Source of the DNA: Letharia columbiana
Lineage: Eukaryota > Ascomycota > Lecanoromycetes > Lecanorales > Parmeliaceae
Assembly: GCF_014066305.1 (NCBI RefSeq)
Contig: NW_023501037.1
Span: 1,240,501 to 1,304,500 of the forward strand
Length of the DNA: 64,000 nt
Direction: 5' to 3'
The number at the start of each line of letters is the position of its first letter. Within the stretch, counting starts at the first letter, position 1. The notes under the pieces are model-generated. The model was not told the DNA's origin and ran no database searches. It saw nothing but the letters and a program-made list of their open reading frames with translations. Positions 48,391 to 63,627 of this stretch are shown one piece after another. The position numbers were made by a program, and so were the translations under genes.

Positions 48391-51175
48391 CTATTCCTCA
48401 TAGATCTTCACCTTCTCCGAGTACTCTCGGACGTTCGAAACATAGTTGTCCTCGATCTGATCGCCTTTGCCGCCTGCAATCCTTAATATCAAATCGTTTA
48501 GTGAGGACCGACCCAGGATATCGACGTGGTCGCCTATGGATGTCAGCAATGCGAGAACATGGCGAATCAACGTCCTTGTTTCATAGGATCATCGGATCAT
48601 GTATGATAGGATCATCCGATCATCGGATCATGGGGTATTGAAAAACGGTGGAGGTAATCGCACCATCCGATAAAATCAAAGGACAGGGTCAGATTCACCA
48701 GTGTTTGGCCCACCTCTGGGTGAAAATCGATCAGGCTCATGCGGCATCTCATAAACCTTTATCTTCACGCCGGCTGGATTAAATCTCTTGAGATGCCATC
48801 CTTTAGCACACATATCTAGCACATTTTCCGAGTCAGCAATACCATTCGTAAATAAAGACCTGGTATTAAGACAGGTTTGAGGAGTAAACAAGGTGTCAAA
48901 AGGGTAATTAATCCCTCCAACATGCCTCGCGACTCAAAGAGCAGTCTCGAACAGGGACACATAAATCTGAAAAGTGCCTTACAGCCGTTACTCAGCAGCG
49001 GCACCGTACCGTCACCTTCTCCTGGAATAACGCCATGATCGACAGCCCCCATCGTTAGAGATGTATCCATCGTGACATTCAGACTACTGTTAGGGTCTTG
49101 GTCTTCCCTATAGAAATAGCTACGCTCTGTGGATTTCCCGACGCCATAGAAGCAGAATATCTTCAGGTTCGGCGCGAGCGGAAGACGGGTTTCTAAGGGG
49201 TTCATCCACTTGCGGTGGTCCTTCTCATTGTCTTCAACTTCGGCGCTAGTATGTGCCACTCCATGAGAGTAATGATCGAGAATTTGGTCTTTGTACCAAG
49301 TATCACTGTGTTCGCTGCATTAAGACTTCGGAGTCAGTATTGCCTTTGAGGAGATAGATACCGAGTCACGAAACATATCTACAGAATAGACACTCCACAG
49401 ACATGTTTCAAGACCCAAGACTTTGTTCAAAGGAGGAAGCATGGCCTCTGGAAAAACGTACAGGAGATATGATATACTCTCCTCCACAGTGAGATTGCTG
49501 GGTGACTGTGTCGAGTTGCTCTCTTTAAAATTAATGAACGTCCCAAAGCTGACTGTCTGATCAGGCTGATCATCAGGTGCCCAAGTTTTATTGCCCCACA
49601 CCGCATTGCCACCTTTGGGTAGCATACTTGAAACGCCAGGCATGGACCTAAAGATCTCGCAGCGCTCATCCTTGCCGAGGAACTTCTCCAGACCATAAAC
49701 AGCGAAGGCGTTGAGTTGCGCCGTGTCCTTCATTTCACCGGAGAGGACCGCCGGAAGGCCTTTAAGAGCGCCAAGCATGGAACCACTGACGTTGATCCAA
49801 GAGTCCACGTACTTATCGACCCAACCTGGCCCACCGTGCCCTGAAGCCTCAACCCAATGATAAAAGTAGAAGAGGACCTGAGAACCCACTGGATGATTTC
49901 GGAGTCAGCATTACTCTTTCAAGAAGATTGCTGAATCGCGAGATTGACTCTTGAGACATGTCTGACGACTCATAAGACGGCGTGGTTGGGGGAAATTGCC
50001 TCGGAAAGTATAACATACTGCTATGGGAAATGAGTACAACTTTTTCGTCTGATGTTAGCACTGCCGTTTCTATGTGAGACCTCAAGCGGGTGAAGTAATG
50101 ATCACGATTCTCTAGATTGGCACAAGACAGTCGCCAATCGTAAGCAGCTGTGAATGCATTCGTTCTAGGCTGTGTGAGTATTGCCTGCGCACATCGTTCA
50201 GGATGTACTTACGGATCGTATCCCAAAGTCGCCAAGTTCTCCAAAATCTTACCCCAAATCCAATACCCAGTGATGAAGCTGCATGGCTGTCAGTGCTCCA
50301 GCTCTTCGACCCCATTCGAACAGACCCTCACAAATCTGCAGCATCTATGTGACTTCGGGGTCAGCAGGTCTCTTTTGTGATCACATCTGAGTCTTGTAAC
50401 AGGTTCCAGGAGTAATCTATTCCTGCCGCAAGTCTTGCGATTCAAAATGCAATACACATTAGGAAGAAACGGCTCGGAAAACATAACGCACCGAACCCTT
50501 GCGCAGCCCTAAGCTTCACTCCCGGGGGATCGAGTCCAGTGAGCTTGTCCAGCATGATGTGCCTCTTCCAGCTCGCTTTATCCAACACCAGAGCCTTCAT
50601 CATGCTCCAGCTGCCCCATAACCTTTTCCGGAAATACTGTATCGATTCTTTTTCTGTGCCCCAACTTTCTAGTCCAGTCGATATGACGCCCGGTATCATA
50701 ATGACTGGATGCAAAGCCCGGACGCCTTGCGATTGTAGATGTAGGCCGACGGAGAAGGAATCGTAATTGACGGTCTCGCGCTCATGTCGCTGTGAGCATG
50801 AGCTGTAGATTAGCTTCAGCTTGTGCCCTTCTCCAAAGACCTTGCAAGCGAGGCATGACGTACTGTTATGTCTTTCGCATCCTTTAAAATGCCCGCCGGT
50901 ATGACATCGAGCAAAGATTCCATATTAAAATCTACCAGACCCTCGAGGTTGATAACATCATGCTGATTGGCAAAAAGTGCAGCAACGACTAGACCAAAGA
51001 GGCCCCCCAAACCAAAGATAGAAAATTGCCATCGCTTGCCTCTCTTCCCTTTGAGCTCTTTGAGACGTGAATGTGATACCAAGGTCACGGGTTCGCCCTT
51101 CGCTGGTGATGGCTCGCACGAAGGCTCTGTGGAGGAAGAGGTGTCACCCAAGAAGCGACGCCTCAAGGTCGACAT
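48391..51175 (-). CDS. lro1: Phospholipid:diacylglycerol acyltransferase LRO1
   Basis: Lro1 transfers an acyl chain from phospholipid to diacylglycerol to make storage lipid at the ER. Exons are 51175-50864, 50789-50492, 50344-50332 (13 nt), 50278-50213, 50164-50019, 49888-49462, 49314-48983, 48815-48699 and 48533-48391, for 617 residues. A membrane anchor lies at about 50-68 (FSIFGLGGLFGLVVAALFA). The alpha/beta-hydrolase part has HPVIMIPGVISTGLESWG, the lid-side WKRHIMLDKLTGLDPPGVKL, AAYDWRLS, the nucleophile elbow ISHSMGSQV (Ser), EGDGTVPLLSNGY (Asp) and GDHVDILG (His). All catalytic residues are present. Four of eight introns (second, fifth, sixth, seventh) are introner-like elements. Confidence 0.95.
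48816..48982 (-). repeat. Introner-like element, LRO1 intron 7
   Basis: This 167 nt intron starts GTAAGGCACTTTT, holds TTGAGTCGCGAGGCATGTT and ends TTGCTGACTCGGAAAATG plus an acceptor. Its core and 3' block recur in other introns of this window. Confidence 0.75.
49315..49461 (-). repeat. Introner-like element, LRO1 intron 6
   Basis: This 147 nt intron starts GTACGTTTTTCCAGAGGCC and ends ATACTGACTCCGAAGTC, then TTAATGCAG. The 5' end resembles the other LRO1 elements and the 3' block matches the family. Confidence 0.75.
49889..50018 (-). repeat. Introner-like element, LRO1 intron 5
   Basis: This 130 nt intron starts GTATGTTATACTTTCCGAGG and ends ATGCTGACTCCGAAATC, then ATCCAG. It carries the core as GTCAGACATGTCTC and an inverted partner CTCGCGATTCA. 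Confidence 0.8.
50345..50491 (-). repeat. Introner-like element, LRO1 intron 2
   Basis: This 147 nt intron starts GTGCGTTATGTTTTCCGAGC, has TTGAATCGCAAGACTTGCGG inside and ends CTGCTGACCCCGAAGTC, then ACATAG. Confidence 0.8.
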
Positions 51176-51420
51176 CCTGTCTTAGATAAGCCACGTTGAA
51201 GCTCAAGGAAACTGCTTGGTGAATGGACCGAGGAGAAGTAGAGAATTGGAGAGATAGCTCGTACATAATAGCTTCGCGACGGAAATTCCCGGCACGTTCC
51301 GGTGTTGCTGTCTACGCCTCGTAGGGCTGACCATGTCAACGGCTTTGACATGCTCCGGACATCCTCAACATACTGGAAAGTAGAGAGGCTTCAGACACAC
51401 GCATTGATTGATATCGAAAA
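51176..51420. promoter_or_regulatory. Divergent promoter of LRO1 and NAA30
   Basis: Only 245 bp separate the two start codons, so the genes must share promoter space. No named site is evident. Confidence 0.45.
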
Positions 51421-52084
51421 ATGAGCAAAGCTACCCTGGATGCGCCTGCAGAGCTTCGTTATGTCCAGTATCATAGCAGCAAAGAAAAGACATATCTTTC
51501 CGCCATACGGCAAATCATATCAGATGATCTCTCCGAGCCTTACAGCATCTACGTTTACCGGTACTTCCTCTACCAATGGGGCGATCTGTGTTTTATGGTA
51601 AGCGGGATTTTCAAAGGTCGTATGCAGTATTTGATCCAAAGGATAGGCTTTGGATGAGGATGAAAGTCTGATCGGCGTTGTTATCTCCAAGCTGGAACCT
51701 CATAGAGGTGGACCCATGAGAGGCTATATTGCCATGCTCGCCGTTAGAGAGGGTTATCGAGGGAAGGGGATTGCCACGCAATTGGTTCGAAAAACCCTCG
51801 ACGTCATGATCGAACGGGACGCCGATGAGGTATTGCAGTCCCAGACCTGATGCTAATTGATGCTGAGAATCACGCAGATCGCACTCGAGACTGAGGTCAC
51901 CAATACTGCCGCAATGAAGCTGTATGAACGCTTGGGGTTTTTGAGGAGCAAGCGACTGCATCGATACTATCTGAACGGTAATTCTGCCTTCAGATTCATG
52001 CTCTTGATCAAGGAAAAATCGGCCGCATATGAATACGAGGACGAAGCACAGCCCCAGTTGCCCATCCGGCCACCGTCGACATGA
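51421..52084 (+). CDS. naa30: NatC N-alpha-acetyltransferase catalytic subunit NAA30/MAK3
   Basis: NatC acetylates nascent chains starting with Met plus a hydrophobic residue. Exons 51421-51597, 51647-51829 and 51878-52084 encode 188 residues; the introns are 49 and 48 nt. The GNAT fold is complete: LSEPYSIYVYRYFLYQWGDL, LIGVVISKLEPHRGGPMRGY, IAMLAVREGYRGKGIATQLV (acetyl-CoA loop in YRGKGIA), then IALETEVTNTAAMKLYERLG and FLRSKRLHRYYLNGNSAFRF. The C-terminal tail is short and acidic/proline-rich. The end faces condensin subunit 1, leaving 95 bp between stops. Confidence 0.94.
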
Positions 52085-52179
52085 ACAGGGTATCTCTAGA
52101 TATACATGATCATTCCTTGACTCTGACTCCAGACGCCCATGCCGATCGGACGCATGAAACACGTAGAGGAAAACGCTTA

Positions 52180-55100
52180 TCAAGCAGCAGCTTGAACGAA
52201 TTGAAAGCCGCCGCTGACGGTTTTCTGGATCTCCTCGTTCTTGTGCTGAAGTAGTGACAAGGCATACGCGACATCGTTCCATTGTCGCTCACTCTCGCAG
52301 CGGGCCAATCTCGCAGCCAGTTTGTCGGCTAATTGTTTCGCATGCTTGTCCTGTGAACGGGTTAATTGGAAGTGGTATAAATGTGACGTTGCATAGGCTT
52401 ACCTTCTCGATAAACGAGGATAAGAATTTAATAATCCTCTTCAGAGCATCCTCCTCTAGATCCCTCTCTGCACTTAGCAATGAGAACATGTCTATGAAGT
52501 GATTGTACACCGCGTTATCTTTTGTTGCGAGCTCGGTGAAGAACATCCGTGAAAGATCCGCGATGCGCTTGTCCGAATCTTCTAGGCACTTCGCCATCTC
52601 GCCCAGCTGACCCTTGACCTTGACTTGACCTGCTAGGATGAGGAAGGTCAAGGTCATTAGACAAGTTCGCTTGACCGAAGCATCGCTGTCATTAAGTCGC
52701 CTGTAGAGGAAGTCCGTGTTCTCGTCAATGAGATGATTGAAACAGACTGCCATGTCTCCCAATGCGATGACAACGTTACTTCTAGTGACGGGATTCTGCG
52801 ATTTTTCGAGTATGGTGATGAGTAAAGGTAAGTTCTTTTCGCAATATTCGGACGAGACACACATCAGCTTAGCCATACAGAGAGTTGCGGCAGCTTGGAG
52901 ATCCTCATCCTGGTAGGCCGTGTTGTTCGAACAGATCTCTGTTACCATGGCCCCAAAGTTCGATAAAAGCGAGTTTTCTCCGTACAAAAGCTCTCGCTCA
53001 CGGATGTGCGTCATGGCTTCTGTGAAATCATCTTCGGTAGTACCGCCAATCAGGTCCAGCTCATCTTGGTCGACTCCTGCCGACTTGACCGGAGAAGCAT
53101 TGGCTGTTTTCGACTTTTCTTTCTCCGCCTTTCTCCGCTTGAAGTCCAGCTCGCAAAGCTCCAGGTGGACGATTTGCTTGATCGCGATATGACCAACGAT
53201 GAAGAGCAGTTGAGATAGAGCTAGAGATGCTTTCTGCTTCCTTTCAGGCTCTTCGGGCGGCGGAGAGGGCAGCCCGCTTTGACCCTCAATTCCCTCCATC
53301 GGCTCTGAAGCTGGCTGTACTACATTTCGAGGCTCGAATATGTGTCTAGTCTTTCTACGAAGTATATCCGAGCAGAGTGTATCGGGATGCTTTGACAGCA
53401 TGTATATAGCGCCGATGGCTTGCTCGGCAACACCGAACCTAACCCCACTATGAGCGCTCAAATAACAAGGATTGGGGATTTGTATTGTACGCACCATTCT
53501 TTGCTATCAGAGACGATTTCGGTCATAGCGGCTAATTTAGTAAGAATGGCATGATCATTGGGAAGCTTTGATGCTGCGGTTGAATCTTCCTTGCCTTGAC
53601 GTTTTGTCGGATTCATACGTCGAAGAGCGAGACAGGTATACTTTGCAAGCGCCAGGTCGGCTCGTCCCAAAGGTCCCAGACCAATACGAAGCATGGCTCC
53701 CATCTCTTTGACGACAATATCGGGGTCTGCAGTAGCTAGCATTCCTAGTACTATGATCGCTCCACGCCTTTGATTTTTAGAGATTTCTTGCTTTTGGACT
53801 CCGTACACCTGCCACAGCTTGGCCACTACCAAATCCGAAACGTGGTCGGCCTTGACCATAGTGTTCAGAAGCTGTTCGAGAGACGTCAGCTCTGCTGGAG
53901 TAGCACCGAACGTCAAGCTGATCATGTTTCGCGCAACATAGTTCGCCGCGTCGTTCTCGCTGAACGAACCTGGAGCGCTGAAGAAGAGACCTCGGTAGCA
54001 GTCGATGAGATGTGTCTGGACCCCCTTTCCCTCGTCACTGTTGCCTTTTGTCCATATTAAGCGCAGCATTCTGCGTATGCCCGTCCTCGCCGCTTCAATT
54101 TTGTAGGCGTCCACAACAACGAAGAAATCCATTGCTTCTATTACTTCGCTTTTGTTCTTCGAAGATAGAAGTTGGCAGACCACGGGAGTACCAGCATGCA
54201 ATACTTCGATGAAGCGGATGGCTTCAATGTAATACTTCCGCGTCAACTGAAGCTTTGTCATAAGTTCAGATGTTGCTGCATCATCTTGAGCTTTTTTTAG
54301 TGCTGCCACCTGCTGTTTTTCGCTCATCGGGGCGGCCTCCTTTGTAGGGCTCTCCGTTGTTGTCGCATCGTCCAACAGAGCACTGTCAACGGTTGCTTCT
54401 GCCTGGAGACTTTTCTCGCCAAGACCAGGCGAATCAGCCGGAGGTTTTGATGCGTCGAGCTGATGCTCCACGGCTTGCAGTCGGTCATCCCATTCTTTGT
54501 ATGATAGCTGTCCACCATGCATGACGCTAAATGGGTGAGTCGACACAAGCTTGCCAAGCAATTTGATGGCATTTCTTCGAACGTTGCTACTCTTATCTTC
54601 AAGACTTCGAGCGGCAAGCTCTGCCGCTGCTTGACGGCGTTTGGGAAATTTCTGCTCCAAGTCACACAGCTTCATGTAGACTTGAATATTTCTGCAACGG
54701 CAATAGGGATTCGTGTCCAGGAATCGCTCTTCTAGAATGTCAAAGAAGCCATTGATTTGTGTTTTAGAGTTCTCATTTCGCTCTTCTTGCTTGCTGAGGT
54801 CCGCTATTAGATTTCCGCATACCTCGATAACAGCGCATCGAAGCGTGTAAGCCTGATGGTATCAATATAGTAGGTCCACTGGAAAAACAAGGCAAACCAA
54901 CTTACCTCGCTGTCCAGTTGCTTGACAAGCAATGTCATTTGCTTAATGACAAGGCGAGGAGCGAGTTCCGAGAGCTTGACTATAAACGTCGAGACAGATT
55001 TGGGGCCTCTTGTGTCATTGTTGTTGAACTCTTTATTGCTCAGGTCCCTACAATGACTTGTCAATGTCGTACATAGAAGCAATACATCTGGACCAAAGCT

Positions 55101-56099
55101 ACCTTAGGACCTCGTCTGTCAATTGTGGGTAATCGTATTGCTCTGAGAGTATGTGAAGAAATTCCGCCATTGGTTCGGCAAGATGCTCGAAGTAGGAAAG
55201 GTTTTGGATAATTGAAGTTTGCGCTCCTGCCATTCATCAGTAACAATGGCCATTTTCACTCTCGGCTGGGTAGTACCAAAAGCATGTCCATGATGCTTAA
55301 CTGCAATGCAGAGCACTTTGAAGGCATGCATTCGCAAAGCACTGTTCTTAATCCGTTGCTCGCTCTCAAGGATTAAGTAGACGGGCCTTGTGAAAAGGCC
55401 AACGAAAGTGTCTCGTTCAGAGGTCGTCACAAATACTTTCCCGAGCTTCAGCTTCAAGACCTTGCACATCGTATCCAAAGCAACCTGTAATTGTGCTGAG
55501 GAATCCCAAGTGCCATCTTTTGTTGTCCCTTTTGACTTTGCACCCTTCCCAGCTCCTCGACCCTTTGCAGGTGCACCGCTTGATTTTTCTGCGGCCTTCA
55601 CTTCCACAACGGATACTGACCACTGCAACAGAAATGCATACATTTCTAACAAACGTTTCTGATGTCGAAAGGCATCTTGCTCGTCGGTCTCGAGCTCAAC
55701 GTGTACGGCGTCGGCCTCCGACGAAAGGCCCGAAATTAAGAGATCGAAGATTTTGCTCAGGGAGTGAGTGGGCAGCAGGGAAGCTGATCTGGAAAGTTTG
55801 AAAAGTTCAGAGTCTGGTTCACTATGGAAGTTGCGTTGAGAGGCAAGAAAATTGGGGGCACACTTGAGTAAAAATTGTAAGGAATCGAATGTGGAGATTC
55901 TGGTCAGGGCGTCCGGATTCTCTGCGATTGAGTCCACGATCGGATTAAGCACTCCATTTACTAAAGAGTTGGTGAGCGACTCTGGATCGTTCTCGCAGTC
56001 CAATAGCGCTCCATCGGCCTCGGGGGTTGCTACTGAAGCGGGGTCACTGAGATAGTACTTGAGCGCATCGTTGATGTCAAAATCCATTTCGTCCCCCAT
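52180..56099 (-). CDS. cnd1: Condensin complex subunit 1 (CND1/YCS4, CAP-D2)
   Basis: This HEAT-repeat subunit of condensin binds DNA and the kleisin and is needed for mitotic chromosome compaction. Exons 56099-55277, 55226-55103, 55047-54906, 54852-53495, 53438-52403 and 52350-52180 encode 1217 residues; introns are 50-56 nt. Landmarks are MDFDINDALKYYLSDP, FLASQRNFHSEPDSELFKL, YFEHLAEPMAEFLHILSEQY, RGPKSVSTFIVKLSELAPRL, NIQVYMKLCDLEQKFPKRRQ, NVRRNAIKLLGKLVSTHPFS, KSEVIEAMDFFVV, SNVVIALGDMAVCFNHLI and VTKT-free C-terminal QKTVSGGFQFVQAAA. A basic Gly/Lys linker (GRGAGKGAKSKG) lies near residue 190. It diverges from CDC7 across 229 bp. Confidence 0.95.
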
Positions 56100-56328
56100 A
56101 GTAAAACAATACGTAAGATCCCTCTAAGACGAAGGTCTGTTCGGTGTATTCTTTCATCATGAATGAAGTTGTAGTTCGTTAGTGCACGGACCATGTTTAT
56201 TTACTTTTAGACGCGTACCGCGCCTGCCCCACCTAGCCTGTTTTGTATCGAAATTTCGTATGATACGATTGATGTGAAACATTACCACCGTATGCATGCT
56301 CGGGAAGATGCTTTAATGGACATCTGAG

Positions 56329-58003
56329 GTGACTGAGTCAGTGAACTGGTTTCTGGGTACTCAAACGATGGCATTGGCGAGGCCCGCGGTGCCAATTGCG
56401 GAAAAGAACCCTTTCATTACAAGCAAACACCTTACGCCAGCAAACAATTTAAGCCACAAATTGGCATTCAGTCCTGGATCGCAATATGACACAGACGAAT
56501 ATGAGGAGGGCGAGGATGAGCAAGAGGGCTCTGAGTGTTCTGAAGAATCCGCAGAGAGCGAATATGCAGTCGACGAGACAGTCAGAGAAGACATGGCCAG
56601 TTTAGAAGACACTTTTCGAGAAATAGGGATGAGGTTTCGCATGATTGCGCGTATTGGGGAAGGTAATGCTAGGATATTCTTGTCGTTGGTGTATTACTCG
56701 AATTTCCCATTGACTCATCTCTCCAGGAACCTTCTCAACCGTCTACAAGGCCGAAGACTTGCACTACGAATACTATCAGAACGATTGGGACGTAGAACAA
56801 AGGGATGCCTCGAAGTGGACATCCCCTCCTCTCAAAAGAAGGAAGAACGCTTCAACCTTGGAAACCAGCCATGATCAATGCCGCCAGCCTAAGCGCCGCT
56901 TTGTCGCCGTAAAAAAAATCTATGTTACTAGCAGCCCAATGAGGATTCAGAATGAACTCGAGCTGCTGCATGACTTGAGAGGATGCAAAGCTGTCTGCCC
57001 TTTGATCACCGCTTGCAGGCATCAGGACCAGGTTGTAGCCGTGCTGCCACATTTTCGTCATCAAGATTTCCGGGTACCTCACTTCGTGGCCCCTGTGCGG
57101 TTCTGTAGCTGATTGCAAGTAGGCCTTCTATCATTCGATGGGCCATAATGAAATCAAGGTATACTTTCGGTCTCTGTTTGAGGCCCTTGCCGCAGTGCAC
57201 AAACATGGAATTATTCATCGAGACATAAAGCCAACGTAAGCAATCAGTAGGAGCATTTTGGGCGCCGCTCACGATTCTAGGAATTTCTTGTTTGACGTCG
57301 AGCGGCAGAGGGGAGTGCTGGTGGATTTTGGCCTCGCTGAGGTAAACGATCAAAACAGATGTTCACTGGCTTGTCGCTGATATAACGACAGCGAGAGGGA
57401 ACTGAATGCTCCCACTGTTTGTGTCAAGAACAGGTGAACATCAGGAAAGCCAAAATCCAATCGAGCAGAGCATATAGTATGCCAACCCCAACGGGATACC
57501 CGAAGGACGATCAACGACCATCTCGTCGAGCCAACAGAGCAGGAACAAGAGGCTTTCGAGCACCCGAAGTCCTTTTCAAGTGCACTGCTCAAACAACGAA
57601 GATCGATATCTGGTCAGCCGGTGTTATATTACTAACTATTCTGGCACAAAGGTTTCCGTTCTTTCACTCTGGGGATGACGTCGAAGCCATGATTGAAATC
57701 GCGACGATATTTGGAAAACAGAGGATGAGAGGATGTGCTTACTTGCATGGCGCTGTCTGGGACTGCAACATCCCAACCATCGGTGAGAAAGGGTTCCCAT
57801 TGTCTCAGATTGTTCAGTGGTCGACGTCAGAGAAAGTAGGAGAACACATGGACCAGGAAACTAAAGAGACGGTGAAATTCTTGGAGCAGTGTTTACAATT
57901 AGATCCCAGCAAACGAATGTCTGCTAGAGCGGCTTTAGCGAGCGACTTTTTGGCAGAGGAGACATACCCCGATACTGAAGTAGAAGAGGTGGGTGCGTTG
58001 TAG
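56329..58003 (+). CDS. cdc7: CDC7-type DNA replication kinase (DDK catalytic subunit)
   Basis: Cdc7 with its partner Dbf4 phosphorylates Mcm proteins to fire origins. Exons 56329-56662, 56727-57073, 57123-57235, 57281-57341 and 57392-58003 encode 488 residues, or 475 from the ATG at 56368 (MALARPAVP), which may be the true start. An acidic N-terminal stretch precedes the kinase domain. Kinase motifs are RIGEGTFSTVYKAED, RFVAVKKIY (ATP-binding Lys), HGIIHRDIKPTNFLFD, GVLVDFGLAE (DFG), GTRGFRAPEVLFK and IDIWSAGVILL. Inserts between subdomains, as in other Cdc7 kinases, hold RKNASTLETSHDQCRQPKRR and the Cys/His segment CSHCLCQEQ. Confidence 0.93.
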
Positions 58004-58226
58004 TGAGAACACAAGAACAAAGCTCCGCACTTGAAGGCATTAGCGTTGCATCAAATACCTCTGGGTCTTGATAAAACAATGTATTTTGCGGATGGGCTTT
58101 AGCAAATTTATGCATGCAAGACGTCTAGAATCCGACTTGCTTTCTGAAGCCGAGTCATTGATTATGCTATGGCCCGGTAGCGAGCATCAATAGGAAGTCA
58201 CCATAACGCTCTTCTCTTAGATCACA

Positions 58227-58973
58227 CTATGCCACCAATTCGACTACTCCTCCTGCCTCCTTGATCTTCCTCTCCGCTTCCCGACTGAAGAACCTCGCTC
58301 GCACCACCATGGGTATATCTGGAATCCGTCCCTTGCCCAAGACCTTCGAGTACCCTAATGGCAGCAGATCAAGAACGGGTGCTGTGTCGCCTTTTTCCTT
58401 CGATAGGTATTCATCACGCTTTTCGACGGGAACTAGTGACCAGAGCTGTAGAGAGAGACATGAGATTAGCTTTGAGTCATTGATTCTGGACAGTGGATCT
58501 CTGATATCCAATTTGCAAGACCCTCCTACACTCCCTCCGGACCGCCCATTGTGCGTTATATCTTGCCGGTCTTTGCTTAGCCGAGGTCCCAAACCTCTAG
58601 CCAACCTCCAATGCATTGTCTCAAATCCCAAGTCCTCTGATAGATGTGAAACGCTCTTCGCTCACCTTGTCCAAATTGATAACCGGCTTCCAGAACTGAT
58701 TCTGCAGCTTGTGGAAGTATCGCATGCCCACTTTTCCGAAGTAACCGGGATGGTATTTGTCGATATTCGTTCGATGGTGATGTTGCCCGCCCGCCATACC
58801 ACGTCCACCAGGATGCTTTCGGTGCTTGCCAACGCGGCCGTGACCAGCGGAGACATGGCCGCGGCTGACAGAAAAAATGTTAGCTGTGGCGGCAGATAAA
58901 TGCTTGAGGACCGTAGAGGTTGATATAGGGATTCGACTTACTGTTTGCGGGTTTGGGTCAGTCGCGTAGGCAT
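58227..58973 (-). CDS. rpl28: 60S ribosomal protein L28 (uL15, L27a)
   Basis: uL15 is a large-subunit protein of cytosolic ribosomes. Exons 58973-58942, 58864-58666 and 58445-58227 encode 149 residues, exactly the family length. Introns are 77 and 220 nt. The sequence starts [20 protein letters not shown] and continues [54 protein letters not shown] and [20 protein letters not shown]. As in other ribosomal protein genes, the first intron falls just after the start. The 220 nt second intron shows no introner motif. Confidence 0.96.
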
Positions 58974-59348
58974 TATTGCGACTGAGGGACGAGTGATGTT
59001 CTTGGTGTAGTCGAAGTGGTAGTCTCGAAATACAATCTTAGGTGTGTGCCAAGACTCGCTTCTTTAGCGGCTTCATCATCAGCCCTACGCTCTTCAACCT
59101 TGCCCCTCCATGCCCTTGACAGCGATTATTGAAAGTTGGGACTCTCTTATCAGTTCGCTGCGGAGCTTCAGTCCATGTCCACGGGCCTTGACCCTCCTCA
59201 TCAGGATGGCTGTCGATCAAAGTCCCTGGCTAACGCGGACGAGGGGATACAGTTGCCATGTCTTTCATGATGATCCCAGCTGATAGCTACTCCATCCTCA
59301 ACCACAGCATTTGCATCAGAATGCAGAAAGAGAACACAACCTACAGCA
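58974..59348. other. Promoter region of RPL28 and nitrilase relic
   Basis: About 375 bp between divergently read genes. No supported frame is seen. Confidence 0.4.
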
Positions 59349-59843
59349 ATGGCAAGACCTGTCAAAGTCGCTGCAGTGCAGGCAGAACCCGGTTGGAACA
59401 ATCTTCAGACCTCAGTCGACAAGACCATCACATTGGATTGAAGATGCTGGCGCCCAGGGGGCCAATGTTCTGGGCTTCCCCAAAGTATTCAATCCAGGCT
59501 ATCCATGGAGTATCTAGCACCACAGCCCTTTGAGTCACACTCAATTCATTCATGAATATGTCAACAATTCCCTAATGAAGGAGTCCCCGGAGATGGAGAA
59601 GATTAGGAAGGCTGTCAAAGCAGCGAGCCTGTATGTAGTATTGGGATACAGTGAGCGGGATAGGAGTAGTATCTACATTGCTCAAGTATGTCACGAGACT
59701 GCCCGTTTTTGGTTCCTAGGCGTAGTAGGATCTCTACAAAAATTAGGACGAACCTCGCACAGTCATTCATGAACCCAGCTAGCGAGATCGTCCTCCACCG
59801 CCGCAAGATTAAGCCGCGCACGTCGAAAGATCACTATGGGGCG

Positions 59844-59928
59844 GTATGTACATTTACGAGATGATTATTCCTATATCGGACTGAAAATCTACCTTGAAGA
59901 AGCAACGCTGACCCTGAAATGCGCATAA
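59844..59928 (+). repeat. Introner-like element, nitrilase relic, broken acceptor
   Basis: It starts GTATGTACATTTACGAG and ends AACGCTGACCCTGAAATG, then CGCATAA. The final AA stands where AG is expected, so this copy could no longer be spliced normally. Confidence 0.65.
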
Positions 59929-60101
59929 ATGGTCAGGCTGACTCCCTGAAGTCGGTAGTGGATACCCCGTTTGGCAAAGTAGGAGGCCTCAATTGCTGGA
60001 AACGCATAAAGCCTCTGCTTCGTCACTACGAGTATTCCCAGGGTGTGGAGATCCATGTCACGGGACGGTCGCCTTTCTGGAAACAGCCAAAGGACATACC
60101 T

Positions 60102-60254
60102 GTAAGGCATTGTTTAGAATCGCGACTTCCTCTTTGACACTAAGTTTCCCAACGAGACATGTTGCGGGAACAAATACTCCCTGAAGTTCTGAACACTTAC
60201 TCGTGACTCGAACATATATGCCGAAATGGAAATACTGACTCCGAAATGTGCTAG
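60102..60254 (+). repeat. Introner-like element, nitrilase relic
   Basis: This 153 nt intron starts GTAAGGCATTGTTTAG, holds CGAGACATGTTGCGGGAA and ends ATACTGACTCCGAAATGTG, then CTAG. Confidence 0.8.
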
Positions 60255-60425
60255 TGGCCATATCATGTCACCGCTGAAGCAGAATCTCGTGCATACCAGT
60301 TCACGGCCTTTGAGGGGGCCACTTTCGTCCTGGTCTGCACACAGATGTTGACCGCGGAAAACGAGGACAGGAATAAGTTGACTGACAGGCCCTTCTGTGA
60401 AGCACCAGGAAGGGGCTTTTCGATG

Positions 60426-60579
60426 GTTTGTACATTCTGGAGCAACTTATGCCCATTTTGTACCACATTCTGAGTTGCAAGACATTTCCGGGAGTTGAAC
60501 GGTCCTTTTACTCCACTTAAGCCGTCTCACTACTTGAGTACTCATACCGAGGGCGATGCTGACTCCGAGCCCTCCATAG
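60426..60579 (+). repeat. Introner-like element, nitrilase relic
   Basis: This 154 nt intron starts GTTTGTACATTCTGG, holds TGAGTTGCAAGACATTTCCG and ends GATGCTGACTCCGAGCCC, then TCCATAG. Confidence 0.8.
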
Positions 60580-60781
60580 ATCTACGGGCCTGACGGCGCA
60601 CCACTAGTGGAACTCTTAGCTCCAGATGAAGAGTATACTCTACGCAGATATTGACCTGTCGACGATTGATTTTGCCAAACAGATGATCGACGTGGTTGGG
60701 CAATATTCGAGGCCTGATTTACTGAGCTTGCAAATGAACACAGAGCCTGCGAAACATGTCCCGACGAAGCAACATACCTAA

Positions 60782-61356
60782 AAAAACCCCCAAGTGGTGG
60801 CCCGACCACGAGGCTCCTTGTCAGGGAAGTCCATACTGTCAGTCGTGGATAAGCTGGATAAAACCCCTCTCTAGTTGGAAAATGCTTCCTGCGTTCGTTC
60901 AACTTGTACTAGTTTTCAGGCATGTGTTGAGTATAAATCCTTGAATATCGCAATAAAAACTAGTTCAAACCATTGTAAGGAAGAAGGTCGTACTTGAATC
61001 GAGGACCAGAACGCGTGAGGCCTTGCCCTCTCTCTCTCTCCCACACAGATTCTACATATCTCGCTTCCCAGCAACAGTGGTACGTACTGGTCATAATCTT
61101 CCGCACAGTATCTCTTACAGCTTCGAGCGCCGTCTCTTTCCAGCATATTGGGGAACCCAGAATAGGTCAGATCATGACATGCTTGTCTTTGGAATTTGCA
61201 TTTGTCGATCGAAACGCTGCCTCGAATTTGCTCATGTGCCAAGCCTTCTTTTAATCCAATATACAAAAATTTGCTATGATAATCTTTTCTTTGACACAAA
61301 GGCGCCGTTCACAATCTTGATCTCATCGACACTCATCAAAAAACAGATCTCCACAA
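60782..61356. other. Intergenic, no supported gene
   Basis: Residual coding similarity from the nitrilase end may extend a little past 60781 in another frame (SRRSNIPKKTPKWW). The remainder is the promoter of the secreted-protein gene. Confidence 0.4.
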
Positions 61357-62152
61357 ATGCATACCACCATTCTCACCATGATCGCCTCACTGCTCCTCGC
61401 TCTGCTTGCCACTGCTGAGGCCATCTGGTCGCCCCCGGTCTGGCCACCTGTTATAAAACAACCCTATTATTGGGGCGACGTGCTAAATATCACGAAATGC
61501 TACTGCCAAGGCCTAAATGAAGACAGGAATGTGGGTCATTACTACCAATTCGACTACCGGAACTATCACAATGAGCAAGAATACACGTTGGCATGGACAT
61601 GCGACTCCGATGTCCGCACTACAGGCTGGGGGACGATCGGCTCCAAGCGAATTGATTTCCTGGTGCCAGACTGCTGGAATGCCCATGATTTATGGAGGAA
61701 AGAGAAACGAAAAGAATGCAGCAGGTCTAACATTGGGGATACTTTCTGCTTTGAACTCGGGAACACTCGCGATCCCTACGACTATTACTACTTCAACGGG
61801 CAGAAGAGAGGGTTGCCAAACTTCGGTATCAGGGAGTTTCCCCCGGATGAATGCGCTGCTTTATGCCGGGACAAGGTGGGTGGGAAGATTGTTGCGAGTA
61901 AGTGCAAATTTCGGGGCACACCCTCCGTCGTCGAACCTTTGGTATTGAGCGGAGTCTCGCGAACGGTTTCAAGCCCAAGCCTGTCTTATAACGTCGGCAT
62001 TTTGCCTCAAAAAAACTATGCTGACTCCGAAATGTCTAGGTGATACGGAGGGAGGGTGGGAGAAGTTCTTGCCAGGTGTGGATGACCGGTTGATGACTCT
62101 AAAGAGCTCGTTTGAGAGCTACACCGATCTTGATGATATGACTGTCGTCTAG
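61357..62152 (+). CDS. Small secreted cysteine-containing protein, function unknown
   Basis: Exons 61357-61897 and 62040-62152 encode 217 residues. A clear signal peptide (MHTTILTMIASLLLALLATA) is followed by a predicted cleavage region near EAIW. The mature protein has nine to ten Cys and many aromatic residues (NITKCYCQGLNE, QFDYRNYHNEQEYTLAWTC, PDCWNAHDLW, DTFCFELGN, DECAALCRDKV). I recognise no domain. The 142 nt intron is an introner-like element, and joining the exons (VAS to DTEGGWEKFLPG) gives an acceptable end. The flanking nitrilase and HD genes are broken but this frame is intact. Size and cysteines would suit a secreted effector-like or cell-surface protein; that is only a guess. 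Confidence 0.75.
61898..62039 (+). repeat. Introner-like element in the secreted-protein gene
   Basis: This 142 nt intron starts GTAAGTGCAAATTTCGGG, holds GAGTCTCGCGAACGG and ends CTATGCTGACTCCGAAATG, then TCTAG. Confidence 0.8.
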
Positions 62153-62261
62153 GCGTACACAGGCTTGTGACACGCATGCATTGGGTAGGGTATGCGCTTT
62201 TGTAGGGCGAAAGGTTTTGGGATGTTGTCTGCGACACAGTGCCTTTGCTGATGGCTGATGA

Positions 62262-62290
62262 CAACATGTGTGTGTGTGTGTGTGCGTGTG
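62262..62290. repeat. (TG)n microsatellite
   Basis: A short run of TG dinucleotides (about 12 units with one interruption) lies 110 bp beyond the secreted-protein stop. Confidence 0.9.
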
Positions 62291-62542
62291 AGATGTATTT
62301 CGTCGATCTTTCCTGAAGTGTACTATAACCGTTTGGGATCGAGAGGAGATTCATGCTCCATTTCGCTGAAAACGGCCCAAACGCGTGCGCTCCAGGGTCT
62401 TGTGTTTTTGAGAGAAAATTTACTTTATGTCATTCATTTGTGACCCTATGGCAGAAATCTCTGAAAGAGTACGAGGCCACCGCACATGAGTCAAAGGGTC
62501 CGCTACCTGCACAGGGGCGCCGACACAACGTCGAAAGACCTT

Positions 62543-63627
62543 TCAACCAAGCGTGCTCGCTACCATGAAGTCGATGTCTTTCGTGCCAGCCAAAGTGTAT
62601 CCCTCGACATAGCGTTCCCCATACGTCCCACAAAGTTGTCGTACGTAGTCTCTGGCTTCGTGCGGCACAGCCTACAACAGATTTCTCGAACGCCCTCCTT
62701 CATTCTCAATCTGGGCAATCCCTTGACAACAACTTTCCATGTGTCCCACGTCAGATGCCCGCCAATTGCTCGGTCTGGTCCGGCGAGATCAGCGTTGATA
62801 CCATAGCTCGTGGCGAGCAACCTCGGGTTCCTTGTGCCACCGCAAATTCTCTCGCTTAGCATGCCGCTTTGAAGGGAGCATTGAGTTGTGAGACCATTGC
62901 GCGAGTGTATTCACTTCTGAATTGGGTCTCAAGACTCCAAATACGGCATGAAATAAGAAATGATGGGCTGTAGGGGCAGCTCACAGCAATGCTCGTGATG
63001 GCATGCGGCGCAGTTGCATCCCATACGAGCCGTAGGCAGTGCTCGTCCTAGTCGGCTGCTTCTCTTTGGAGAAAATCACGTGCAGCGTTGGCGCTGTCTA
63101 CGCACATTTCGGAGTCAGCATCGCTTATTCAAGGCAAGAAATCAACATTAGTGAAACAAGTTTCAGCAGTAGGAGCAGGTTTTTGCCACCGGACTATGGA
63201 TAGCTCCAAAATGTGCGTGAATACACACATTTTAAAGTCAGCATTACTTCTCCAAGGTAGATATTTGAGTTACAAGACACTTCTCGGGAGTATGAAAGGT
63301 CACTTTGTTCGCGAAGCATGTCTCGCAGCTCAAATTCAGTACCTAACAAGAGTCATGTCCGAGATGTACGCCCCGACTTTAAAGCGCTTCTACGAGATCG
63401 CCGATCTCGTCCCTACCCAGGTTGTGCAAGATAACAGCTATTACATAAGCCTCGAGATCACGACCTTGGAGCCCAAGTGTCTTTATTACAATGATAAAAC
63501 CGAAGAGCCAGGCTCTTACGCTGCGGTTATAAGCGAGGTCACTAAGATGCTTGCGGCAAAGAGCGAGAGCTTTGTTTATCAATTGTGTGTTGGGGACTGG
63601 GACTCCAGCGAAGATTCAAATTGGTAG
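62543..63627 (-). pseudogene. HD-domain hydrolase (cyanamide hydratase-like), decayed
   Basis: Pieces on the minus strand line up with fungal HD-domain proteins: AGVPVPNTQLINKALALCRK, LAYNRSVRAWLFGFI, DLEAYVIAVILHNLGRD, then a degraded stretch with one or two introner-like elements, SANAARDFLQREAAD, DEHCLRLVWDATAPH, ATSYGINADLAGPD, VREICCRLCRTKPETTYDNF and, after a frameshift, GERYVEGYTLAG with a stop at 62543. The metal-binding HD signature is changed (HNLG for HDLG). A TAG replaces the Trp between AAD and DEH. Relatives bind metals and hydrate or hydrolyse small molecules. The fragment order shows one ancestral gene, not several. Confidence 0.7.
63098..63303 (-). repeat. One or two introner-like elements in the HD-domain relic
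   Basis: Two family 3' blocks occur here on the minus strand: ATGCTGACTTTAAAATGTG (near 63225-63240) and GATGCTGACTCCGAAATG (near 63101-63118), the second ending GTGCGTAG at 63098. Either two elements lie in tandem or one element carries an internal duplication. Confidence 0.6.

What the first reader, a model, noticed from the sequence alone, without database searches (positions are those of the whole stretch)
48816..63303. Family of near-identical intron ends: introner-like elements in four unrelated genes
At least nine introns in LRO1, the nitrilase relic, the secreted-protein gene and the HD relic end in variants of GCTGACTCCGAAATG just before the acceptor, with the branch-site CTGAC inside this block. 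Six or more also share an inner core near TTGAGTCGCAAGACATG. They are 85-167 nt, whereas most other introns here are 46-77 nt. Shared sequence in introns of unrelated genes cannot come from common descent of those genes; it fits intron multiplication as described for introner-like elements in Dothideomycetes.
Basis: partly seen in the sequence, partly recalled or inferred. Interest (0 to 1): 0.9.

Follow-up and report, generated by a model that had tools for sequence, protein, structure and literature searches.

The report
Self-copying introns in a lichen fungus
A lichen-forming fungus carries hundreds of look-alike introns that have copied themselves into unrelated genes, some so recently that close relatives lack them, and some subfamilies insert almost only next to particular letters, which gives a new handle on how new introns arise.

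Summary
Ten elements lie in window 48816-63370. They belong to a genome-wide family of introner-like elements: the acceptor block has 154 hits against 2 for the reversed control, and five donor patterns together 264 against 16. Of 174 distinct hits collected, 120 are full-length GT..AG introns. They sit in unrelated genes, and removing them usually restores the reading frame. Six sites in three genes are empty in relatives, one of them 97% identical in protein. The host is a Parmeliaceae-like lichen fungus (Lecanoromycetes), not a Dothideomycete. No target-site duplication was detected.

The surprise is the insertion sites. Family-A copies that follow C always precede A (27 genome hits, of which 26 are introner-like; 0 with any other letter). 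Other A copies mostly follow G (29 of 34), and B precedes GTG (13 of 16). Family D shows no such rule. At the five sites checked, homologous proteins align with no gap at the joint, so these letters belong to the target. The identity is firm; the mechanism (probably RNA- or transcription-linked, seamless insertion) is inferred. No RNA data were available.

The parts
48816..48982 (-). Introner, family C, LRO1 intron 7 of those modelled (167 nt), between ..LLSNG and YMCAKGW..
   Evidence: Full-length profile match 142.8 bits; exact intron of LRO1
49315..49461 (-). Introner, D/A-like, LRO1 intron 6 (147 nt)
   Evidence: Profile match 41.3 bits, model A 10-148 of 156; exact intron of LRO1; predicted hairpin, -40.9 kcal/mol
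49889..50018 (-). Introner, family D, LRO1 intron 5 (130 nt), inside the motif SHS|MGSQ
   Evidence: Profile match 100.6 bits; exact intron
50345..50491 (-). Introner, family D, LRO1 intron 2 (147 nt)
   Evidence: Profile match 49.3 bits; exact intron
48816..51175 (-). LRO1 (phospholipid:diacylglycerol acyltransferase) gene from its start codon through the last introner; the gene goes on below 48816
   Evidence: 577 aa modelled, 94% and 93% identical to an unnamed relative and to Imshaugia aleurites
59844..59926 (+). Decayed family-A remnant in the nitrilase relic; acceptor AG lost. The start is my reading of the sequence
   Evidence: Partial profile match at 59888-59926, model 116-154 of 156; read
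60102..60254 (+). Introner, family C, in the nitrilase relic (153 nt)
   Evidence: Full-length match 57.6 bits; joined flanks match CN_hydrolase
60426..60579 (+). Introner, family A, in the nitrilase relic (154 nt)
   Evidence: Match 63.3 bits, model 2-145 of 156; boundaries
61898..62039 (+). Introner, family B, in the secreted-protein gene (142 nt), followed by GTG
   Evidence: Full-length match 106.8 bits; open in one frame after removal
63222..63370 (-). Introner, family A, in the relic at 63.1-63.4 kb
   Evidence: Match 76.6 bits, model 4-155 of 156
63098..63224 (-). Second family-A introner, 5' part divergent, abutting the previous one (tandem)
   Evidence: Match 62.6 bits at 63098-63205, model 51-156; 127-nt boundaries

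Best explanation
The elements are introners (introner-like elements): mobile spliceosomal introns that multiplied in the genome of a Parmeliaceae-like lichen fungus and created new introns in many unrelated genes. SHOWN: many copies, similarity ending at GT and AG, coding sequence restored on removal in most copies, empty sites in relatives at the six sites examined, no target-site duplication detected, and fixed neighbouring letters in families A and B. INFERRED: a whole intron, carrying donor, branch site and acceptor and (in A, B, C, E) complementary ends, is inserted seamlessly as a unit into the transcribed strand of a coding exon and is spliced from birth. Neighbouring copies share one strand, copies favour coding frames, and no duplication is seen. 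I therefore favour a transcription-linked route, either reverse splicing of the excised intron or insertion into exposed coding-strand DNA, over ordinary cut-and-paste transposition (about 0.5 for an RNA intermediate). What chooses the neighbouring letters is unknown. The confidence below is for identity and recent gain, not for the insertion chemistry.
For: Copy number: 154 vs 2; donors A 167 vs 11, B 20 vs 3, C 19 vs 0, D 35 vs 0, E 23 vs 2. A whole-copy search gave 41 matches, 29 of them spanning the query from first to last base, the query's own place included. Of 124 near-full copies, 122 have GT at the exact model start and 113 AG at the exact model end, though models were cut at GT..AG and many loci were chosen by donor patterns, so this part is partly built in; independent of that, flank information drops to about 0.1 bit in A, C and D apart from -1 and +1. 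Removal leaves an open frame in 95 of 119 copies, against 63-77 when the joint is shifted by 1 or 2 nt, 57 on the opposite strand, and 15 when the intron is kept. Neighbouring hits share a strand in 57 of 60 pairs; six of the 57 have negative gaps and are mostly two pieces of one copy, which leaves 51 of 54. 16 of 20 spliced fragments hit Pfam, 15 kinds of gene. Empty sites: LRO1, four sites; MRJP-like; PMI. The closest copies at different places are 97.4% identical with different flanks.
Against: No RNA reads were available, so splicing is inferred. Family D has no end complementarity (own ends -6.3 against -7.4 kcal/mol for exon flanks), so symmetric ends are not required. Stability beyond shuffles is clear for A (44 of 57 with z below -2), moderate for C and D (6 of 12, 12 of 25) and weak for B and E (3 of 16, 3 of 8). 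24 of 119 copies leave no open frame. The density outside genes was not measured. Strict neighbour letters are not predicted by plain reverse splicing.
Confidence: 0.93

Rival explanations
1. They are ordinary non-autonomous DNA transposons (MITE-like) with terminal inverted repeats that happen to carry splice sites, moved by a transposase.
For: Ends are complementary in A, B, C and E (own-end duplex -12 to -17 against -7.4 kcal/mol for exon flanks); fixed insertion letters suggest a sequence-reading integrase.
Against: No duplication detected in A, D or all families pooled (B, C and E not tested alone, and a constant duplication hidden in G or GTG would escape this test); family D has no inverted ends yet has 25 full copies; neighbouring copies share a strand and most lie in coding frames, whereas a transposon should also leave intergenic and antisense copies (their number was not measured).
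Confidence: 0.2
2. Insertion is random, and the neighbour letters only reflect which insertions splice well enough to survive.
For: Exon letters next to splice sites affect splicing (general knowledge); -1 = G in many A copies fits the usual exon consensus.
Against: C before a GT is a poor splice context (general knowledge), yet C is strictly tied to a following A (27 vs 0); copies with the same TAG acceptor include both C|A and G-preceded sites, clustered by clade; family D has no fixed letter at -1 or +1.
Confidence: 0.12
3. Shared sequence arose by gene conversion or duplication of gene segments that carry ancestral introns.
For: One pair, L058 and L059, is a segmental duplication.
Against: Flanks beyond the neighbour letters are not alike even between the closest copies, host genes are of different families, and relatives lack the introns at the six sites examined.
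Confidence: 0.02

Closest known systems
Introner-like elements of Dothideomycetes (van der Burgt 2012, not read, seen only as cited; Collemare 2015, PMC4457414, parts 1-2 of 4 of its text read)
   Same: Near-identical introns in unrelated genes, several families per genome (PMC4457414); stable predicted folds, no canonical transposon marks, collinear with transcription (PMC3443670, passages). That they are longer than ordinary introns is recalled.
   Different: Host is a Lecanoromycete. Insertion rules here differ by subfamily (C|A, G|, |GTG, none); the preference reported for the Dothideomycete elements is AG/GY, as quoted in PMC8469720 (passages).
Sister stwintrons and cropped sister introns of Hypoxylaceae and Xylariaceae (PMC8469720, PMC12403724; passages)
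   Same: Terminal inverted repeats in the intron, seamless insertion, no target-site duplication, working only on the coding strand.
   Different: Those are mostly twin introns with no neighbour-letter bias reported; here single introns with strict neighbours in A and B. Two clear tandem pairs with zero or one base between were seen here (L019, L123).
Introners of algae and other protists with transposon marks (Gozashti 2022, PMC9860276; passages, no supplement seen)
   Same: Introns multiplying across genes; some families have inverted ends.
   Different: No target-site duplication or splice-site co-option detected here. That paper calls ascomycete families an outlier with no inverted repeats or duplications; families A, B, C and E here do have complementary ends.

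Membership tests
Introner / introner-like element | Many sequence-similar introns in unrelated genes of one genome | tested here: met
   16 of 20 fragments hit 15 kinds of Pfam family
Introner / introner-like element | Similarity spans the intron end to end and stops at the splice sites | tested here: met
   29 of 41 matches span the whole query; flank information falls to about 0.1 bit in A, C and D apart from -1 and +1, while B keeps GTG
Introner / introner-like element | Recent gain: site empty in relatives | tested here: met
   Six sites in three genes, from ORFs on long contigs. That these ORFs are unspliced genomic reading is inferred from where they start and end
Introner / introner-like element | Spliced in vivo | not testable with these tools
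   No RNA reads; only restored frames and protein alignments with no gap at the joint
Fungal introner-like element (Dothideomycete type) | Stable predicted secondary structure | tested here: inconclusive
   z below -2 in 44 of 57 A copies, but in 3 of 16 B, 6 of 12 C, 12 of 25 D, 3 of 8 E, 0 of 2 F
Fungal introner-like element (Dothideomycete type) | Insertion preference AG|GY | tested here: not met
   The preference differs by subfamily: C|A, G|, |GTG, or none
DNA-transposon introner | Target-site duplication or splice-site co-option | tested here: not met
   Adjacent flanks of 2-9 nt match at or near chance; largest z 2.46, D at 9 nt. A constant duplication hidden in GTG (family B) or G cannot be excluded by that test
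DNA-transposon introner | Terminal inverted repeats | tested here: met
   Families A, B, C, E; not D
Stwintron | Internal intron splitting the donor of an external intron | not tested
   Tandem pairs seen in L019 and L123 were not parsed as stwintrons

The most novel reading that the evidence does not exclude
These introns insert by a sequence-reading machinery specific to each subfamily: a single-strand-DNA or RNA-guided insertion into the coding strand exposed during transcription. It reads one to three neighbouring letters (C|A, G|, |GTG), leaves no duplication and uses the folded, symmetric intron ends. It would be neither plain spliceosomal reverse splicing nor a cut-and-paste transposase. 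The excess of phase-1 sites (C|A copies 13 of 17 with a confident frame, against 409 of 1630 CA dinucleotides in the exons of the collected copies) would also need explaining.
Probability: 0.2. Interest if true: 0.92.

Novelty: new variant of a known kind. Interest (0 to 1): 0.74.

Why it matters
How new spliceosomal introns arise is an old open question, and in ascomycetes it is disputed whether introners spread through RNA or DNA. This adds a lichen fungus (Lecanoromycetes) as host: in the held open-licence papers, none holds 'introner' with 'Lecanoromycetes', and those holding it with 'lichen' or 'Parmeliaceae' are unrelated by title. Some copies are recent enough to be missing from a 97%-identical protein of a relative. 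The strict insertion letters are a new constraint: random break repair and plain reverse splicing do not predict them, so they turn a vague mechanism into one that can be tested by swapping introns and targets.

Tried and rejected
Local repeat or chance: rejected. Common descent of the host genes: rejected. Target-site duplication: 648 combinations of length and offset for each of three groupings (A, D, all families pooled; B, C and E not alone); largest z 3.4, not beyond what so many tests give; for directly adjacent flanks the largest z are 2.46 and 2.42 (D, 9 and 7 nt) and 2.34 (pooled, 9 nt). GTG and C..A as part of the element: rejected, because spliced proteins have no gap at the joint against Rab11, aldolases, 2qe8, DNA methyltransferase and PMI relatives; short gaps lie six or seven residues upstream in the Rab and the best aldolase alignments. 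Compensatory maintenance of the end stem: own partner no better than a same-family partner in A-E. Covariance model R1 was built, but this genome cannot be searched with it. RNAalifold gave a terminal stem for A1 (no pair with changes on both sides) and none for A2. Flank inheritance beyond -1/+1 among the closest A pairs: only a weak signal at +2. Rfam: no match in the window at gathering scores. Notes corrected: says 14 of 16 for GTG, the count is 13 of 16; one search says 14 kinds of gene, the count is 15, one below its Pfam cut-off.
Full report
WHAT WAS CHECKED. The window is G000:C2:1240501-1304500 of a 52.24-Mb, 161-contig assembly. The reported block GCTGACTCCGAAATG occurs ten times in the window at up to 3 mismatches, against 2.5 expected. 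One of these (13404) is unrelated; the other nine are intron ends between 48.8 and 63.3 kb. Profile search with five family models and one two-sequence model finds ten elements in that region and none in the other 49 kb or so of the window at E <= 0.001.

GENOME-WIDE COPIES. The acceptor block with at most one mismatch has 154 hits, against 2 for the same letters reversed. Donor patterns with at most two mismatches have: family A 167 vs 11, B 20 vs 3, C 19 vs 0, D 35 vs 0, E 23 vs 2. A single whole copy used as query finds 41 places, 29 of them from its first to its last base, its own place included. From 136 fetched stretches plus the window, 210 non-overlapping hits gave 174 distinct ones after removing repeats of the same place or of duplicated segments; a few of the 174 are two pieces of one copy. 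Of these 124 were near full length, and 120 had GT and AG within a few bases of the model ends: A 57, B 16, C 12, D 25, E 8, F 2. The loci were picked by their similarity, so family proportions are not a census, and the total number of copies was not measured.

ANATOMY. GT stands at the exact model start in 122 of 124 and AG at the exact model end in 113 of 124; since the models were cut at GT..AG and many loci chosen by their donors, this is partly built in. Not built in is the fall of information content from 1-2 bits inside to about 0.1 bit outside in A, C and D, apart from -1 and +1. Median lengths are 147 (D) to 167 nt (C, F). The ends are complementary in A, B, C and E (mean own-end duplex -16.9, -15.3, -14.7 and -12.4 kcal/mol, against -7.4 for exon flanks) but not in D (-6.3). 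Own partners pair no better than partners from other copies of the same family, so the pairing seems inherited and not maintained. Many copies of A fold into one long hairpin that holds donor and acceptor together (44 of 57 with z below -2); C and D are intermediate, and B and E are not convincingly more stable than shuffles.

THEY ARE INTRONS IN GENES. Removing the element leaves an open frame over 75 nt on each side in 95 of 119 copies, against 63 or 77 when the joint is shifted by one or two bases, 57 when the joined exons are read on the other strand, and 15 when the element is left in. LRO1, rebuilt from the window, reads through all four of its introners and is 94% and 93% identical to its closest relatives. 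Twenty spliced fragments were scanned with Pfam: 16 hit 15 kinds of family, one of them (Methyltransf_25) below its cut-off. Neighbouring hits lie on the same strand in 57 of 60 pairs; six of the 57 have negative gaps, mostly two pieces of one copy, leaving 51 of 54. One introner directly follows another with no base between (L019) or one base (L123).

WHO CARRIES THEM. The LRO1 homologues point to Lecanoromycetes, Parmeliaceae: Imshaugia aleurites 93%, Mycoblastus 87%, Lecanora helva 83%. The species itself was not identified.

RECENT GAIN. Proteins in the collection that come from long contigs and start or end inside the gene, as unspliced reading would give, show exons without the introner. 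For the phosphomannose isomerase copy (L071) I read 12 of the 91 hits: P0138 (97% identical, 196-kb contig), P0139, P0147, P0150 and P0158 are uninterrupted across the site; the listing gives 15 proteins, P0138-P0152, at 87-97% identity covering 99-100% of the query. Among the others, P0221-P0223 stop matching earlier, after FLPK, as an intron at another place would give, and P0194 shifts frame at the site. For LRO1 I read 8 of the 120 listed: P0024 (89% over 81% of the query, 502-kb contig), P0074, P0080 and P0090 pass all four introner sites and also the sites of ordinary introns 2 and 3 without a break. For the MRJP-like gene (L122), P0121-P0126 cover 99-100% of the query, three of them (P0123, P0125, P0126) on contigs of 98 kb, 1.16 Mb and 64 kb. 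That these entries are unspliced is inferred. The closest pair of copies at different places is 97.4% identical with unrelated flanks.

INSERTION SITES. Classical target-site duplications were not detected: directly adjacent flanks of 2 to 9 nt match at or near chance in A, D and all families pooled (largest z 2.46). But the immediate neighbours are far from random. In family A, 23 of 57 copies lie between C and A (6.9% of dinucleotides in nearby exon are CA; p about 1e-12); all 23 copies with C before have A after; of the other 34, 29 follow G. In B, 13 of 16 are followed by GTG (1.65% background). D shows no fixed letter at -1 or +1, though C stands at -2 in 14 of 25 (p about 0.0009 before correction). 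E and C lean to T at +1 (6 of 8, 6 of 12). The label follows the tree of family A: 9 changes for the three groups, against 22 in shuffles (0 of 200 as low); C|A copies cluster but are not one clade (6 changes). A direct genome-wide test gave 27 matches to C-[GTACGTAC..TGCGTAG]-A and 0 to the same with C, G or T last (reversed-pattern controls 0 and 3). Of the 27, one (C38) does not look like an introner in its printed part, and two (C77, C109) lie in one duplicated segment. The G-preceded form, with either GCGCAG or GCGTAG, has 21 (control 2), one of which (C45) does not look like an introner.

ARE THE LETTERS PART OF THE ELEMENT? No, at the five sites checked. The spliced protein has no gap at the joint: Rab-like L083, Q kept as in Rab11; aldolase L121; DNA methyltransferase L004; the MRJP-like gene L122, whose W encoded by the TGG of the site is also present in 2qe8 and in all 15 rows of the alignment of relatives; and PMI L071. 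Short gaps lie six or seven residues upstream of the joint in the Rab and the best aldolase alignments. At the aldolase site the three letters are GCG, not GTG.

READING FRAME. Of 113 copies in the classes counted, 79 have a confident frame; 45 of these are phase 1. C|A copies are phase 1 in 13 of 17, whereas CA elsewhere in exons of the collected copies is phase 1 in 409 of 1630. I have no explanation.

HOW IT PROBABLY WORKS. Shown: whole introns, seamless, mostly in coding exons, recently gained where examined, with subfamily-specific neighbours in A and B. Inferred: the intron moves as a unit in a transcription-linked way. Plain reverse splicing explains the exact ends, strand and lack of duplications, but not the neighbour rules. 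A transposase explains the neighbour rules and inverted ends, but not the lack of duplications, the strand bias or family D. A single-strand or RNA-guided insertion would cover all of these, and nothing here tests it directly.

COMPARISON WITH WHAT IS KNOWN. Fungal introner-like elements are known from Dothideomycetes (PMC4457414, parts 1-2 of 4 read) and related stwintrons from Xylariales (PMC8469720, PMC12403724, passages). Gozashti et al. (PMC9860276, passages; its supplement with the species list was not seen) call ascomycete families an outlier with no inverted repeats or duplications. In the held papers 'introner' with 'Lecanoromycetes' gives 0, with 'Parmeliaceae' 1 and with 'lichen' 2, none on lichen fungi's introns by title. 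For insertion-site rules I saw only listings (20 of 688 and 12 of 43 papers), so I cannot say that such a rule is unpublished; only open-licence papers are held, and van der Burgt 2012 was not read. The work is filed as a new variant of a known kind because of the host class and, chiefly, the strict subfamily-specific insertion sites.

Noticed in passing
P0194 (relative of the PMI gene), site of L071: A relative, 92% identical over half the query, reads as the same exon but shifts frame at exactly the C|A site, as if one extra base lay there. It could be an excision scar, a sequencing error or chance; another entry, P0136, shifts frame a few residues past its site.
   Followed up: partly
L019 (783 and 938), L123, window 63098-63370: Introners directly abutting another introner (zero or one base between in L019 and L123), so two introns share no exon.
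   Followed up: partly
window 50279-50331 and 50165-50212: The two short ordinary LRO1 introns are also absent from relatives P0024, P0080 and P0090, so they may be old, shrunken introners or other gains.
   Followed up: no
L058 and L059 (C109 and C77): A recent segmental duplication of an amino-acid permease gene with its introner.
   Followed up: yes
L019 and L086: Longer introner variants with an internal duplication of about 60 nt.
   Followed up: no
L004 (C2:1060341-1063355): What looks like one DNA cytosine methyltransferase gene carries introners of families A, B and D within 3 kb.
   Followed up: no
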